A stretch of 64,000 bases of DNA, from the NCBI RefSeq assembly GCF_036127095.1, contig NZ_CP108006.1, forward strand, positions 6,253,501 to 6,317,500, in the 5' to 3' direction. A program made the position numbers and the translations under genes. Shown in pieces: positions 15,661 to 27,363 of this stretch. Each line of letters begins with the position of its first letter. Within the stretch, counting starts at the first letter, position 1. Source of the DNA: Streptomyces sp. NBC_00335. GTDB lineage: Bacteria > Actinomycetota > Actinomycetes > Streptomycetales > Streptomycetaceae. The notes below the pieces were generated by a model that searched no databases, was not told the origin of the DNA, and saw only the letters and a list, made by a program, of their open reading frames with translations.

Positions 15661-15948
15661 GTGTCCATACCTCCCGTCTTCTTCTGGATCCTGCTGGCCC
15701 TCGCGGCCTTCCTGTTCCTCTCCGCCGTCCGGGCACTGCCGCGCGCCCTGCGGGCCGAACCCGGCGCCCGGACCGACCCGTGGCTGACCTTCGCCGACCA
15801 CGTGCTGTCGATCCCGCCCACCGTCGCCTTCGCGCTGGGCGAGGGGGAGGCGGCGTTCTACGCGCTGCTCCTGCTGGGCCCCGTCCTCATCTGGAGCACG
15901 GTCCGCTCCTTCCGCTCCGCCGGGGCGGAGCGGAAGGCGGCCGGCTAG
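15661..15948 (+). CDS. Small conserved membrane protein
   Basis: 95 residues with an N-terminal membrane helix (FFWILLALAAFLFLSAV) and a second hydrophobic stretch near the end (AAFYALLLLGPVLIWSTV). No known domain recognised. The GTG start has TAGATT 7 nt upstream and TTGACG (15627-15632, overlapping the ldhA stop) as a -35, so it seems to be transcribed leaderless. Its stop codon overlaps that of the convergent trpEG in the 4 bp CTAG. Confidence 0.65.
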   Translation: MSIPPVFFWILLALAAFLFLSAVRALPRALRAEPGARTDPWLTFADHVLSIPPTVAFALGEGEAAFYALLLLGPVLIWSTVRSFRSAGAERKAAG

Positions 15949-17849
15949 GCCTCGGCCGGGGTGCGGACCCCGGCGATCAGATCGCGGACCAGGTCCGCCC
16001 CGCGGAGGGTCAGGACCGACTCCGGGTGGAACTGCACGCCCGCGAAGCCTCCCGCCGCGGAGCGCAGCGCGTGGACCTCGCCGGTGGCGGGGTCCCGGGA
16101 GACCTCGATGCCGCGCAGGGCCAGGGACCGCTCCCGCTCCGCGGAGCAGTGCGCCGCGTAGGTGTTGTAGAAGCCGACGACCTCCTCGGCCCCGAACAGC
16201 GGGATCCGCGTCTGCGCCCCCTGCGCCGGCTCCGCCTTGCGGACCAGCGGGAGCCCCAGCTCGGCGGCGAGCAGCTGGTGGCTGAGGCAGACCCCGAGCA
16301 GCCCGCCGCGGTGCGAGGCCATGAGCTCCGCCGTCAGCTCGCGCATCGTCCGGATCTTCGGATCGCCGAAGTCCGCCGGGTCGCCCGGGCCGGGGCCGAG
16401 CACGATCGGCCCGTCCCAGGCCAGGGCGGCCGCCCGCAGCCCCGGGTCGTCGTAGCGGCGTACCGTCACCTCCAGCCCGGCCACCCGCAGCACGTGTCCG
16501 AGCATCGAGGTGAAGGTGTCCTCCCCGTCCACCACCAGCGCGTGGCCCGTCACCTGCGCCGGCCGCTCCTGCATCCGCAGCCAGAACGGCGCCAGGTCCT
16601 CGCGGCGCGCCGCCAGGGCCGCCTGCACCCGGGGGTCGTCGGCCAGCCGCGGCCCGCCGAAGGAGGGCCGGACCGCCGCCGGGCGCACGCCCAGCGCCGC
16701 CAGCACCCCGGCCGCCTTCGCGTGCGTCTCCGCCACCTCGCCCGCCGGGTCGGAGTGCCGTACGAGGGTGGCCCCGACGGGCACCCGCAGTGCGCCGTCC
16801 GGCGCGATGTCCGCCGTGCGGATGAGGATGGGTGAATCGAGGGTCTGGGCGCCCGAGGCGTCGAGGCCCAGCAGGGCCAGCGCGCCCGCGTAGTAGACGC
16901 GGCCGCCCGTCTCGTACCGCTCGATGACCCGGCAGGCGTTCTGCACCGGCGATCCGGTCACCGTCGCCGCGAACATCGTCTCCTTCAGGACCTCGCGGAC
17001 GTCCAGCGAGGAGCGGCCGCGCAGCTCGTACTCGGTGTGCGCCAGGTGCGCCATCTCCTTGAGCCGGGGACCGACGACGACCCCGCCCATGTCCCCGACC
17101 GTGCACATCATCTTGAGCTCCTCGTCCACCACCATGGACAGCTCCTCGGTCTCCTTGCGGTCGCCGAGGAAGGCGAGGAGGGAGTCGGCGGTCGGCCCCC
17201 CGGCCGGATGGCGGTACGTACCGCTGATCGGGTTCATCACGACCGTGCCCCCGGACATCCGCACGTGCACCTCGGGGCTGGCCCCGACGAGGGTGCGGTC
17301 CCCGGTGTGGACCACGTACGTCCAGTACGCGCCCCGCTCGCCCTCCAGCAGCCGCCGGAACAGGGCCAGGGCGTCGGAGCGGCCGAAGCCCTCGATCCGG
17401 CCCTGGTAGGTGCGCCGGATGACGAAGTTCGCGCCCTCGCCCCGGCCGATCTCGTCCTGGATGACCCGCCGGACGGTGTCCGCGTACTCCTCGTCGGGGA
17501 CGTCGAAGCCGCCGTCCTCGACGCGCACCTCGTGGGCCGGCAGCGCGGCCAGCGCCTCGGCGAGCGGGATCTCGTACGTCTCCTCGGCGACCAGCACGCT
17601 CAGCGGCGTGCCGTCGTCGCGCACGTCGAACCCGCGCTCCCGCATCTGCCGGAAGGGGACGAGGGCGAGGGCGGGCCGCTCGCCGACGGGCAGGTCCGCC
17701 AGGAGCGCGGCCTCGTGGACCGGGCCGATCAGCACCTCGACGATGTCGTGGTCGCGGCCGGGCGTGCGGCGGCGCAGCAGCGCGAAGGGCGGGCAGGTGT
17801 CGTCGAGCAGGCGGCTCAGGAGCGTGTGCGAGTGCGAGTGCGCGTGCAT
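15945..17849 (-). CDS. trpE: Anthranilate synthase, fused TrpE-TrpG
   Basis: Converts chorismate and glutamine to anthranilate, the first committed step of tryptophan synthesis. 634 residues. The chorismate-binding component spans about 1-420 (SPEVHVRMSGG, NPISGTYRHP, MFAATVTGSP, ERYETGGRVYYAG). The C-terminal class I glutamine amidotransferase has PGPGDPADFGDP, the nucleophile Cys in GVCLSHQ, and FHPES. This single-chain form is shared with phenazine-type (PhzE) and Streptomyces TrpEG enzymes; the Trp-codon attenuator upstream argues for tryptophan synthesis rather than a secondary metabolite. Divergent from aroH, which supplies the pathway. The N-terminus is His-rich (HAHSHSH), with no obvious role. 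Confidence 0.9.
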   Translation of the reverse strand: MHAHSHSHTLLSRLLDDTCPPFALLRRRTPGRDHDIVEVLIGPVHEAALLADLPVGERPALALVPFRQMRERGFDVRDDGTPLSVLVAEETYEIPLAEALAALPAHEVRVEDGGFDVPDEEYADTVRRVIQDEIGRGEGANFVIRRTYQGRIEGFGRSDALALFRRLLEGERGAYWTYVVHTGDRTLVGASPEVHVRMSGGTVVMNPISGTYRHPAGGPTADSLLAFLGDRKETEELSMVVDEELKMMCTVGDMGGVVVGPRLKEMAHLAHTEYELRGRSSLDVREVLKETMFAATVTGSPVQNACRVIERYETGGRVYYAGALALLGLDASGAQTLDSPILIRTADIAPDGALRVPVGATLVRHSDPAGEVAETHAKAAGVLAALGVRPAAVRPSFGGPRLADDPRVQAALAARREDLAPFWLRMQERPAQVTGHALVVDGEDTFTSMLGHVLRVAGLEVTVRRYDDPGLRAAALAWDGPIVLGPGPGDPADFGDPKIRTMRELTAELMASHRGGLLGVCLSHQLLAAELGLPLVRKAEPAQGAQTRIPLFGAEEVVGFYNTYAAHCSAERERSLALRGIEVSRDPATGEVHALRSAAGGFAGVQFHPESVLTLRGADLVRDLIAGVRTPAEA

Positions 17850-17910: not shown

Positions 17911-17936
17911 GAAGGCCGCCCCTCGGGGCGGCCTTC
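17911..17936 (-). terminator. trp attenuator terminator
   Basis: GAAGGCCGCCCC and GGGGCGGCCTTC form a 12-bp G/C-rich stem in the trpE leader, followed on the minus strand by CGTGTTTC. An upstream GGCGGCC within leader-peptide codons 15-17 can pair with the GGCCGCC of the 5' arm to form the competing antiterminator. Confidence 0.85.
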
Positions 17937-17949
17937 GGTTCGCTCGTGT

Positions 17950-18018
17950 TCAGGTACGCGCGAGAAGTGGGCCGCCGGGAGCGGGCCACCACCAGTTCTG
18001 GTTCGAGTGCGCGTACAT
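17950..18018 (-). CDS. trpL: trp leader peptide with three consecutive Trp codons
   Basis: A 22-residue peptide beginning MYAHSNQNWWWPAPG, too short for ordinary gene finding. Codons 9-11 are TGG TGG TGG. It ends 14 bp before the attenuator hairpin and 101 bp before the trpE start. When charged tRNA-Trp is short, a ribosome stalled on these codons would free the downstream GGCGGCC to pair with the terminator's 5' arm and let transcription reach trpE. Trp attenuation of this gene is known or predicted in other Streptomyces. TAGGGT (18026-18031) lies 7 nt before the ATG with no Shine-Dalgarno sequence, so the leader peptide itself appears to be made from a leaderless transcript. Confidence 0.9.
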   Translation of the reverse strand: MYAHSNQNWWWPAPGGPLLART

Positions 18019-18144
18019 GCCCTGAACCCTAGCCCACCGGTCCGGCGAGGGCTGGTAAACGGGTCAGTAACACAGGGAGAGACATCCGTCTCACGTAGTG
18101 GTCGACGATCGGGACGCGCGGTGTGACGACGTAATGTGTGTGGG

Positions 18145-19500
18145 GTGACCGTGAACGCAGAAACCCAAGCCCCCGCCTCCAAGGCGACCTGGCGAGACCT
18201 TCCCGCGGCGCAGCAGCCTTCGTACCCCGATGCCGAGGCCCTGCGCGCTGTCGTCGCGGACCTCGAGTCGTATCCCCCCCTCGTTTTCGCGGGCGAATGC
18301 GACCAGCTGCGCGCCCGCCTGGGAGCCGTCGCCAAGGGCGAGGCGTTCCTGCTGCAGGGTGGCGACTGCGCCGAGGCCTTCGATGCCGTCTCCGCCGACC
18401 ACATCCGCGCCAAGCTGAAGACGCTGCTCCAGATGAGTGCCGTCCTGACGTACGCGGCCTCCGTGCCGGTCGTCAAGGTCGGCCGCATCGCGGGCCAGTA
18501 CTCCAAGCCCCGCTCCAAGGACACCGAGACCCGCGACGGCATCACCCTGCCGACGTACCGCGGCGACTCCGTGAACGGCTTCGCCTTCACCGAGGAGTCC
18601 CGTGTCCCGGACCCCGAGCGCCTCAAGCGCATGTACCACGCGTCGGCCTCCACGCTGAACCTGGTGCGCGCCTTCACCACCGGCGGTTACGCCGACCTGC
18701 GCCAGGTGCACGCCTGGAACCAGGACTTCGTGAAGAACTCCCCGTCCGGGCAGCGCTACGAGCAGCTCGCGCGGGAGATCGACAACGCGCTGAACTTCAT
18801 GAAGGCCTGCGGCACCGACCCGGCCGAGTTCAAGGCCGTCGAGTTCTACGCCTCCCACGAGGCGCTGCTCCTCGACTACGAGGGAGCCCTCACCCGTACG
18901 GACTCCCGCACCGGCCGGCTGTACGACACCTCGGGCCACATGGTCTGGATCGGTGAGCGCACCCGCCAGCTCGACCACGCGCACATCGAGTTCTGCTCGC
19001 AGATCGCCAACCCGATCGGCATCAAGCTCGGCCCCACCACCACGGTGGACGAGGCGCTCACCTACATCGACCGCCTCGACCCCGACCGCGAGCCGGGCCG
19101 GCTGACCTTCGTCGTCCGCATGGGCGCCGACAAGGTCCGCGACAAGCTCCCCGAGCTCGTCGAGAAGGTCACCGCTTCCGGTGCGACCGTCGCCTGGGTC
19201 ACCGACCCGATGCACGGCAACACCTTCGAGGCGGCCTCCGGCCACAAGACGCGCCGCTTCGACGACGTGCTCGACGAGGTCAAGGGCTTCTTCGAGGTCC
19301 ACAAGGGCCTCGGTACGCACCCGGGCGGCATCCACGTCGAGCTCACCGGTGACGACGTCACCGAGTGCGTGGGCGGCGGCGACGAGATCTTCGTCGACGA
19401 CCTGCACCAGCGCTACGAGACGGCCTGCGACCCGCGCCTGAACCGCAGCCAGTCCCTGGACCTGGCGTTCCTGGTCGCCGAGATGTACCGCGACCAGTAA
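18145..19500 (+). CDS. aroH: 3-deoxy-7-phosphoheptulonate synthase, class II
   Basis: Condenses phosphoenolpyruvate and erythrose-4-phosphate, the first step of the shikimate pathway. 451 residues, class II (plant/actinobacterial) type: FAGECDQLRARL, LLQGGDCAEAF, PVVKVGRIAGQYSKPRS, GDSVNGF, CSQIANPIGIKLGP, WVTDPMHGNT and HVELTGDDVTECVGG cover the metal and substrate sites. TAATGT (18132-18137) lies 7 nt before the GTG at 18145, giving a leaderless start; an in-frame GTG at 18136 lies within this hexamer and one at 18151 is possible. A perfect terminator follows. In Mycobacterium the class II enzyme is also near pknL. Confidence 0.93.
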   Translation: MTVNAETQAPASKATWRDLPAAQQPSYPDAEALRAVVADLESYPPLVFAGECDQLRARLGAVAKGEAFLLQGGDCAEAFDAVSADHIRAKLKTLLQMSAVLTYAASVPVVKVGRIAGQYSKPRSKDTETRDGITLPTYRGDSVNGFAFTEESRVPDPERLKRMYHASASTLNLVRAFTTGGYADLRQVHAWNQDFVKNSPSGQRYEQLAREIDNALNFMKACGTDPAEFKAVEFYASHEALLLDYEGALTRTDSRTGRLYDTSGHMVWIGERTRQLDHAHIEFCSQIANPIGIKLGPTTTVDEALTYIDRLDPDREPGRLTFVVRMGADKVRDKLPELVEKVTASGATVAWVTDPMHGNTFEAASGHKTRRFDDVLDEVKGFFEVHKGLGTHPGGIHVELTGDDVTECVGGGDEIFVDDLHQRYETACDPRLNRSQSLDLAFLVAEMYRDQ

Positions 19501-24929: not shown

Positions 24930-27150
<2,221 letters not shown>

Positions 27151-27161
27151 GGGCGTCCAGC

Positions 27162-27252
27162 CCCTCCCTTCGCCGGCATGACCCGGATCAGGTTCGTACG
27201 GTCGGAGGCCGGCCAGCCTCCCTCTCAGCCCGGTGCGCCCGGACTCCCGCGA
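27162..27252 (-). promoter_or_regulatory. TPP riboswitch (THI element)
   Basis: On the minus strand it contains the conserved GGGCTGAGAGGG segment followed by ACCTGATCCGGGTCATGCC and GGCGAAGGGAGG, the two pyrophosphate- and pyrimidine-binding arms of the thiamine pyrophosphate aptamer. No obvious terminator hairpin lies before thiO and the ribosome binding site is in the closing stem strand, so control is probably at translation initiation. Confidence 0.95.
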
Positions 27253-27363
27253 TAGGTTCGGTGCCAGAGTAACGCCGAGGCCGACGGCCGGTAAGGCTGC
27301 CTCCCCGGTGCCGGCCGCCGCCCGGCCGCCGCCCGGTCCCCAGCAGGTTCCCGCCCGCTATTC

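What the first reader, a model, noticed from the sequence alone, without database searches (positions are those of the whole stretch)
17911..18031. Complete trp attenuator with a leaderless Trp-Trp-Trp leader peptide
A 22-codon peptide with three TGG codons in a row precedes a terminator hairpin in the leader of the fused trpE-trpG gene. A GGCGGCC in codons 15-17 can pair with the 5' arm of the terminator, giving a mutually exclusive antiterminator. Seen directly: peptide, terminator, competing segment, and TAGGGT 7 nt before the leader ATG. Known: trp attenuation occurs in Streptomyces. Less usual is that the leader peptide itself seems to be translated from a leaderless transcript, so initiation on it would be by 70S ribosomes.
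Basis: partly seen in the sequence, partly recalled or inferred. Interest (0 to 1): 0.7.

Follow-up and report, generated by a model that had tools for sequence, protein, structure and literature searches.

The report
Leaderless tryptophan attenuator before trpEG
This is the Streptomyces version of a known RNA switch that senses tryptophan through a tiny peptide read from the very start of the message; comparison with relatives shows that the layout is widely kept and suggests an extra RNA helix that closes the start codon when no ribosome is present.

Summary
On the minus strand a 22-codon ORF (MYAHSNQNWWWPAPGGPLLART*, 17950-18018) follows TAGGGT by 7 nt and precedes a GC-rich terminator (17911-17936) and fused trpE-trpG. 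The corresponding S. lividans leader (trpL1, MFAHSTRNWWWTAHPAAH) was reported as transcribed leaderless (PMC8079986), and an S. venezuelae trp attenuator was published in 1998 (citation seen only). What I add: (1) all 265 unique trpEG leaders recovered from Streptomyces and other Actinomycetes have TAnnnT 6-8 nt before the start, against 0.6% of other ATG/GTG. (2) The 1:2 / 2:3 / 3:4 architecture is kept. (3) A further helix, P0, pairs nt 3-10 (start-codon region) with a segment 3' of strand 2. It covaries, has counterparts in most trpS/trpD leaders checked, and is predicted to tip ribosome-free RNA toward termination. I found no report of P0, but literature access was limited. (4) In this window's clade a 2-nt difference recodes the peptide's C-terminus but keeps the RNA strand, so the stop no longer lies where it masks strand 2. 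Attenuation: known kind. P0: likely new, computational only.

The parts
18026..18031 (-). -10 box TAGGGT; 7-nt spacer (18019-18025) places +1 at or next to the leader ATG
   Evidence: TAnnnT 6-8 nt from the start in 265 of 265 unique trpEG leaders, control 258 of 43727
17950..18018 (-). Leader ORF MYAHSNQNWWWPAPGGPLLART*, predicted leaderless
   Evidence: counterpart of S. lividans trpL1
17986..17994 (-). Three TGG (Trp) codons, codons 9-11: the sensor
   Evidence: WWW in 245 of 265 unique leaders, WW in the rest
18009..18016 (-). P0 helix, 5' arm (nt 3-10, from the G of the ATG to the first base of codon 4)
17954..17961 (-). P0 helix, 3' arm (GCGCGUAC, nt 58-65)
   Evidence: similar pairing in most of 15 trpS/trpD leaders
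17980..17990 (-). Strand 1 (overlaps the Trp codons); pairs with strand 2 in hairpin 1:2
17966..17976 (-). Strand 2 (GGCGGCCCACU; GGCGGCC at 17970-17976): pairs with strand 1 or strand 3
   Evidence: 20 nt from the first Trp codon in 213 of 265 leaders, 18 nt here
17926..17936 (-). Strand 3, 5' arm of the terminator; GGCCGCC (17927-17933) pairs with strand 2 in the antiterminator
17911..17921 (-). Strand 4, 3' arm of the terminator; T-containing tail follows
   Evidence: mean 5.3 T in the 10 nt after the strand-4 core GGCGGCC, stem-end T included
15945..17849 (-). trpEG: fused anthranilate synthase (Chorismate_bind + GATase), the controlled gene
18145..19500 (+). Divergent class II DAHP synthase (neighbour sharing the intergenic region)

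Best explanation
It is a ribosome-mediated transcription attenuator of trpEG whose leader peptide is translated from a leaderless transcript. Transcription starts at or next to the ATG, so a ribosome can load as soon as the 5' end emerges. With little charged tRNA-Trp the ribosome stalls on TGG codons 9-11 and covers strand 1; strand 2 then pairs with strand 3 (antiterminator) and trpEG is read. With enough Trp the ribosome runs on to the stop; strand 2 is masked or re-pairs with strand 1, and the 3:4 terminator forms. Without any ribosome, helix P0 (start-codon region with GCGCGUAC) encloses and stabilises hairpin 1:2, so the default is termination and the 5' AUG is closed to late initiation. 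Shown by sequence and comparison: the elements, their conservation, the -10/start spacing, and covariation of P0 and of the terminator. Inferred: the exact +1 in this strain, 70S loading, Trp response, and the P0 function.
For: Elements present. WWW leader in 138 of 138 readable orthologous loci of the genus. Leaders in 20 of 20 loci fetched from other genera of the family and 14 of 20 fetched from other families of the class, both sets picked by hand from the hit lists. TAnnnT 6-8 nt before the start in 265 of 265 unique trpEG leaders versus 0.6% control. SD-like 4-mer in 1 of 265. Terminator: 5 of 11 pairs with two-sided changes. 2:3 pairing kept in 97.5% of cells. Constrained folds to the end of strand 3: antiterminator in 60 of 265 free, 260 of 265 stalled at the first Trp codon, 26 of 265 with a ribosome at the stop. 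P0: 6 of 8 pairs with two-sided changes, covariation score 0.154 versus 0.104 +/- 0.010, 0 of 500 shuffles; 198 of 265 leaders form P0 without 2:3 when free, and 129 of those switch to 2:3 when nt 1-12 are blocked. Published: the corresponding S. lividans leader is transcribed leaderless; classical trp attenuators were predicted in Streptomyces.
Against: No expression data for this strain. 2:3 shows no covariation because it hardly varies, and 1:2 has no pair with two-sided changes. P0 scores nearly as well slid by +/-2 columns (0.145, 0.144) because CGCG repeats; only 3 of 12 positions exceed shuffles; nt 5 is unpaired in the common MFA type; an earlier register rule gave weaker signals. In 60 of 265 free leaders, 6 of 16 in this window's clade, 2:3 is predicted in spite of P0. 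With a ribosome on the stop the antiterminator is still predicted in 13 of 16 leaders of this clade, this one included, and in 13 of 42 others with unusual stops, so there the high-Trp branch must rely on ribosome release and refolding. TAnnnT was met in 16 of 20 further model hits; four trpS-type leaders missed it.
Confidence: 0.9

Rival explanations
1. Attenuator as above, but the transcript starts further upstream and the leader is translated by an SD-independent 30S or 70S-scanning route; the TAGGGT spacing is coincidental.
For: The start site is not mapped in this strain; I saw no obvious -35 by eye (sequence).
Against: TAnnnT at 6-8 nt in 265 of 265 unique trpEG leaders, GTG-start ones included; start-site data in S. 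lividans call the corresponding leader leaderless.
Confidence: 0.05
2. P0 is not functional: the complementarity arises from high GC, the palindromic CGCG core and shared ancestry.
For: Slides of +/-2 columns score almost as well; shuffles and swaps do not remove relatedness; in 60 of 265 leaders free RNA is predicted in 2:3 instead; among 15 trpS/trpD leaders L338 and L341 are no better than shuffled, and L338, L340 and L341 pair worse with their own segment than with others'.
Against: Two-sided changes at 6 of 8 pairs; nt 4, 5 and 10 exceed shuffles in 172 distinct combinations and in 41 non-Streptomyces ones; own arms beat swapped arms in all of 2000 trials; pairing recurs with different sequences in trpS/trpD leaders, mean duplex -13.9 versus -8.8 shuffled and -11.2 swapped.
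Confidence: 0.4
3. The leader peptide or the attenuated leader RNA also acts in trans, as reported for rnTrpL/peTrpL of Sinorhizobium meliloti.
For: The S. meliloti trpL RNA is likewise leaderless and its products are reported to act in trans (passages).
Against: In this window's clade a 2-nt difference changes the peptide's C-terminal half while the RNA strand is kept, and N-terminal codons vary with their P0 partners; both suggest RNA rather than peptide constraint. No target was sought.
Confidence: 0.07

Closest known systems
trpL1-trpE attenuator of Streptomyces lividans TK24 (PMC8079986, Table 4; section 14 read, passages elsewhere)
   Same: Matching leader (MFAHSTRNWWWTAHPAAH), three Trp codons, reported as transcribed leaderless, hairpins before a monocistronic trpE.
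   Different: Here the peptide continues WWWPAPGGPLLART after a 2-nt difference and the stop lies 24 nt after the strand-2 start, against 10 nt in 207 of 265 leaders; the section read mentions no start-codon helix.
trp attenuators predicted in Corynebacterium and Streptomyces (Seliverstov 2005, PMC1262725; passages read) and the S. venezuelae trp attenuator (Lin 1998; citation only)
   Same: UGG runs, GC-rich terminator, gGCC-rGCy-GGCC antiterminator/terminator triples.
   Different: Their alignment runs from the Trp codons to the terminator, so the 5' codons that form P0 are outside it (legend seen).
trpL/rnTrpL of Sinorhizobium meliloti (PMC7298713; passages read)
   Same: Leaderless leader peptide in front of trpE(G), attenuation.
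   Different: Different phylum, 14-aa peptide, trans-acting sRNA and peptide reported.
Leaderless poly-Cys attenuators of mycobacteria (Canestrari 2020; citation and a review passage only)
   Same: Leaderless short ORF whose run of codons senses the amino acid.
   Different: Cysteine; Seliverstov 2005 saw no conserved hairpin terminator before mycobacterial cys operons (passage).
E. coli trp attenuator (recalled)
   Same: 1:2, 2:3, 3:4 logic; distal leader RNA was reported to inhibit leader peptide synthesis (recalled).
   Different: SD-led leader, and a TrpR repressor in addition (recalled).

Membership tests
Ribosome-mediated trp attenuator | Short leader ORF with tandem Trp codons directly upstream of a Trp-pathway gene | tested here: met
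Ribosome-mediated trp attenuator | Intrinsic terminator between leader and gene | tested here: met
   11-bp stem 17911-17936; conserved with covariation; mean 5.3 T in the 10 nt after the strand-4 core, stem-end T included
Ribosome-mediated trp attenuator | Mutually exclusive antiterminator favoured by stalling at the Trp codons | tested here: met
   Prediction only: 260 of 265 at the first Trp codon versus 60 of 265 free
Ribosome-mediated trp attenuator | Ribosome completing the leader favours the terminator | tested here: inconclusive
   Antiterminator in 0 of 207 leaders with the usual stop, 13 of 42 others, 13 of 16 of this window's clade
Ribosome-mediated trp attenuator | Read-through responds to charged tRNA-Trp | not testable with these tools
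   needs reporter or RNA-seq
Leaderless mRNA | +1 at or within a few nt of the start codon | tested here: inconclusive
   -10 spacing met; the corresponding leader was found leaderless in S. lividans; not mapped here
Leaderless mRNA | No Shine-Dalgarno sequence before the start | tested here: met
   SD-like 4-mer in 1 of 265 leaders
Leaderless mRNA | Initiation by 70S ribosomes | not testable with these tools
   general statement of a review (passages)
Any Rfam 15 family (including a trp leader family) | Match at the gathering score | tested here: not met
   Only a TPP riboswitch elsewhere in the window; best local match 19.1 bits against a threshold of 50, on the other strand

The most novel reading that the evidence does not exclude
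Actinomycete trp attenuators (trpEG, trpS, trpD) share a start-codon lock: a long-range helix between the 5' terminal codons of the leaderless leader ORF and a segment 3' of strand 2. It makes the ribosome-free RNA default to termination and limits initiation to ribosomes that load before about nucleotide 65 is made. The switch thus has three ribosome-dependent states read by one RNA (no ribosome: off; at the start or Trp codons: on; at the stop: off), and leaderless loading is built into the mechanism.
Probability: 0.5. Interest if true: 0.6.

Novelty: new member of a known kind. Interest (0 to 1): 0.37.

Why it matters
As an attenuator it is the counterpart of a described one, so by itself it is ordinary. 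The comparison shows that -10 box, start codon and Trp codons have been kept in a leaderless layout in every trpEG leader recovered, in the genus, its family and five other families of the class. That makes leaderless loading look integral to attenuation here rather than incidental. If the P0 helix is real, it explains why the first codons of a throw-away peptide are conserved, and gives a direct test of how initiation on a leaderless RNA is coupled to RNA polymerase. It may also bear on the published remark that a computer model of the S. venezuelae trpE attenuator failed unless RNA triplexes were added (PMC4833913, passage).

Tried and rejected
Rejected: that the WWW ORF is a chance ORF (conserved in 138 of 138 readable loci). 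Checked: whether the other trpEG-like genes of this genome carry the switch. No Trp-rich leader within 700 nt was found at L002 and L003, and the one L004 hit lay on the opposite strand. Five distant hits beside a PhzD-like gene (L288, L294, L296, L299, L305; recognised by eye from motifs, recalled) and L300 have no leader. An automatic pick at L288 was dropped as spurious, and L277 and L302 were put right by hand. So of 298 loci, 7 gave no leader: L138 (cut by a contig end), the five PhzD-side ones and L300.

Where several in-frame starts existed I preferred the one with TAnnnT, which inflates the leaderless count slightly; the 0.6% control rate bounds this. The window's own leader has only one possible start.

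The first P0 register rule used the first CGCG of a CGCGCG run and gave only marginal signals (nt 4: 139 against a shuffle maximum of 138; nt 10: 75 against 73; nt 5 not above). After seeing that, I used the rightmost CGCG. Two of 265 leaders (L183, L268) had no register and were left out; L268 itself has an 8-bp match. The plain longest-run test gave a mean of 6.3 against 5.0 for shuffles. Alignment A1 holds 58 of the 265 leaders, picked as representatives below 80% identity. For the distant comparison I fetched 20 loci (19 genomes) from the listed class hits outside the family and 20 from other genera of the family, chosen by hand; L184 and L185 came. One search used 15 of the 20 loci; five that looked like trpEG leaders (L342, L343, L346, L347, L349) were left out. 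The model search in the phylum found no hit outside the class (13 of 296 genomes, all in the class). Searches for papers on the S. venezuelae attenuator, leaderless leaders or a P0-like helix; in their listings and in the passages read I saw no description of P0.

Full report
What is there. On the minus strand the window reads TAGGGT (18031-18026), 7 nt, then ATG (18018), a 22-codon ORF MYAHSNQNWWWPAPGGPLLART*, a 26-nt terminator hairpin (17936-17911) and, 61 nt further, the ATG of a 634-aa fused TrpE-TrpG protein (PF00425 and PF00117). A class II DAHP synthase (PF01474) is divergent. The leader ORF has no alternative start between its ATG and the upstream in-frame stop at 18066. The RNA folds at -59.9 kcal/mol against -43.6 +/- 3.8 for shuffles. 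No Rfam family reaches its threshold here.

Conservation in the genus. The genus is unnamed in the genome tool; I call it Streptomyces because the nearest named records are Streptomyces and some contigs agree in length with the unnamed ones (for example G039:C1 and NZ_BMVL01000001.1, both 888843 bases). 150 genomes of the genus were searched with TrpEG. I took 139 places as orthologues; the other 11 genomes had only weaker matches (best E 8.7e-189). Of the 139, 135 have an ORF with three consecutive Trp codons and an in-frame ATG (for L141 a GTG further in fits better), 3 more (L068, L126, L140) have it with GTG (read by eye), and one is cut by a contig end (L138). The consensus peptide is about MFAHSTQNWWWTAHPAAH (by eye). 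A second pass over 298 loci (genus, family, class and named records; some genomes appear twice), after hand corrections, gave 291 leaders, 265 of them unique.

Leaderless layout. In the 265 unique leaders TAnnnT ends 7 nt (220), 6 nt (43) or 8 nt (2) before the start codon (247 ATG, 18 GTG). Other ATG/GTG codons in the same loci have this in 258 of 43727 cases, and in 5 of 1953 near the leader. The S. lividans study gives a mean -10 to start-site distance of 6.3 nt, with 88.7% of spacers between 5 and 7 (passage), so +1 should fall on or next to the start codon. The same study lists the corresponding leader as transcribed leaderless. An SD-like 4-mer at -15 to -5 is present in 1 of 265.

Beyond the genus. 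All 20 loci fetched from other genera of the family have such a leader with TAnnnT 6-7 nt upstream, and 14 of 20 fetched from other families of the class (five families among the 14) have a WW or WWW leader, for example MYATVLGTWWPAS, with TAnnnT 6-8 nt upstream. A covariance model (R1) found the element in 69 of 296 genomes of the class and in 13 of 296 genomes drawn from the phylum, all of them in the class. I fetched 20 hits that were second matches or lay away from a trpEG found earlier. Four of their genes were tested: trpS for L336 (this genome, G000:C1:3659463, leader MTTRALTLDLRWWAA, 7-nt spacing) and L337, trpD for L344 and L345. By eye eleven others look like trpS and five like trpEG. 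TAnnnT 6-8 nt before the start was found in 16 of the 20; L337, L338, L339 and L341 missed it, and their -10 looks weaker.

Switch anatomy. Strand 1 contains the Trp codons, strand 2 is GGCGGCCCAC, strands 3 and 4 form the terminator. In the 58-sequence alignment 5 of 11 terminator pairs show two-sided changes; 1:2 has none; 2:3 is paired in 97.5% of cells but too invariant to covary. The distance from the first Trp codon to strand 2 is 20 nt in 213 of 265 leaders, although the Trp codons start anywhere from codon 7 to 19. Folding RNA up to strand 3 with an assumed ribosome footprint of about -17 to +13 (recalled) gave the antiterminator in 60 of 265 leaders when free, 260 of 265 with the A-site at the first Trp codon, 26 of 265 with the A-site at the stop, and 183 of 265 with nt 1-16 covered as by an initiating ribosome.

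The P0 helix. In the window fold nt 3-10 (GUACGCGC) pair with nt 58-65 (GCGCGUAC). Across 172 distinct arm combinations, pairing at nt 4, 5 and 10 (3 of 12 positions) exceeds all 1000 shuffles; in 41 non-Streptomyces combinations p is 0.000, 0.002 and 0.004 at these, and own arms (mean 6.56 pairs at nt 3-10) beat swapped arms (mean 5.99) in 2000 of 2000 trials. On alignment A1, 6 of 8 P0 pairs have two-sided changes, with a covariation score of 0.154 against 0.104 +/- 0.010 (0 of 500); slides of +/-2 columns reach 0.145 and 0.144 because of the CGCG repeat. Examples are UAC/GUA, AUC/GAU and AAC/GUU at codon 2. In 15 trpS- and trpD-type leaders the 5' arm and the downstream segment pair at -13.9 kcal/mol on average, against -8.8 for shuffled and -11.2 for swapped segments; L338 and L341 are no better than shuffled, and L338, L340 and L341 pair worse with their own segment than with others'. 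In the window RNA P0+1:2 (-33.6) narrowly beats forced 2:3 (-32.8), and blocking nt 1-12 makes 2:3 win. The same change occurs in 129 of the 198 leaders that form P0 without 2:3. I infer that P0 makes termination the default and closes the start codon to late initiation; this is a prediction. None of these controls removes shared ancestry.

This window's clade. Sixteen of 265 unique leaders, including this one, are 2 nt shorter between strands 1 and 2 (TCATCCGGCGG against TCCCGGCGG; presumably a deletion). The RNA strand is kept, the peptide's C-terminal half changes, and the stop moves from 10 to 24-27 nt after the strand-2 start. With a ribosome on that stop, 13 of 16 still fold as antiterminator, against 0 of 207 leaders with the usual stop and 13 of 42 others; when free, 6 of 16 fold as antiterminator. 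Either release and refolding do the work here or the Trp response is weaker; this is open.

Against the literature. I found no description of P0 in the searches listed under Tried and rejected; most subscription papers are not held, and Lin 1998 was not read.

Noticed in passing
window 18132-18150 (+): The divergent class II DAHP synthase also looks leaderless: TAATGT, 7 nt, GTG at 18145. Its N-terminus could be located in 159 of 265 unique leader loci; in all 159 some in-frame start has TAnnnT 6-8 nt upstream (no control run).
   Followed up: partly
G000:C1:3659463-3659571 (L336): This genome has a second attenuator of the same build before trpS, leader MTTRALTLDLRWWAA, leaderless by the same criterion.
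   Followed up: partly
L344, L345: The same RNA element precedes trpD (TIGR01245) in two distant actinomycete genomes.
   Followed up: partly
L002, L003, L004: Three further trpEG-like genes in the same genome, 54-56% identical to the one in the window; no Trp-rich leader found on their strand within 700 nt upstream.
   Followed up: partly
window 27148-27260 (-): TPP riboswitch (RF00059, 57.1 bits).
   Followed up: no
L300: A distant trpEG without a leader peptide, whose own ATG seems to follow TAGGCT by 6 nt: possibly a leaderless trpEG mRNA (read by eye).
   Followed up: no
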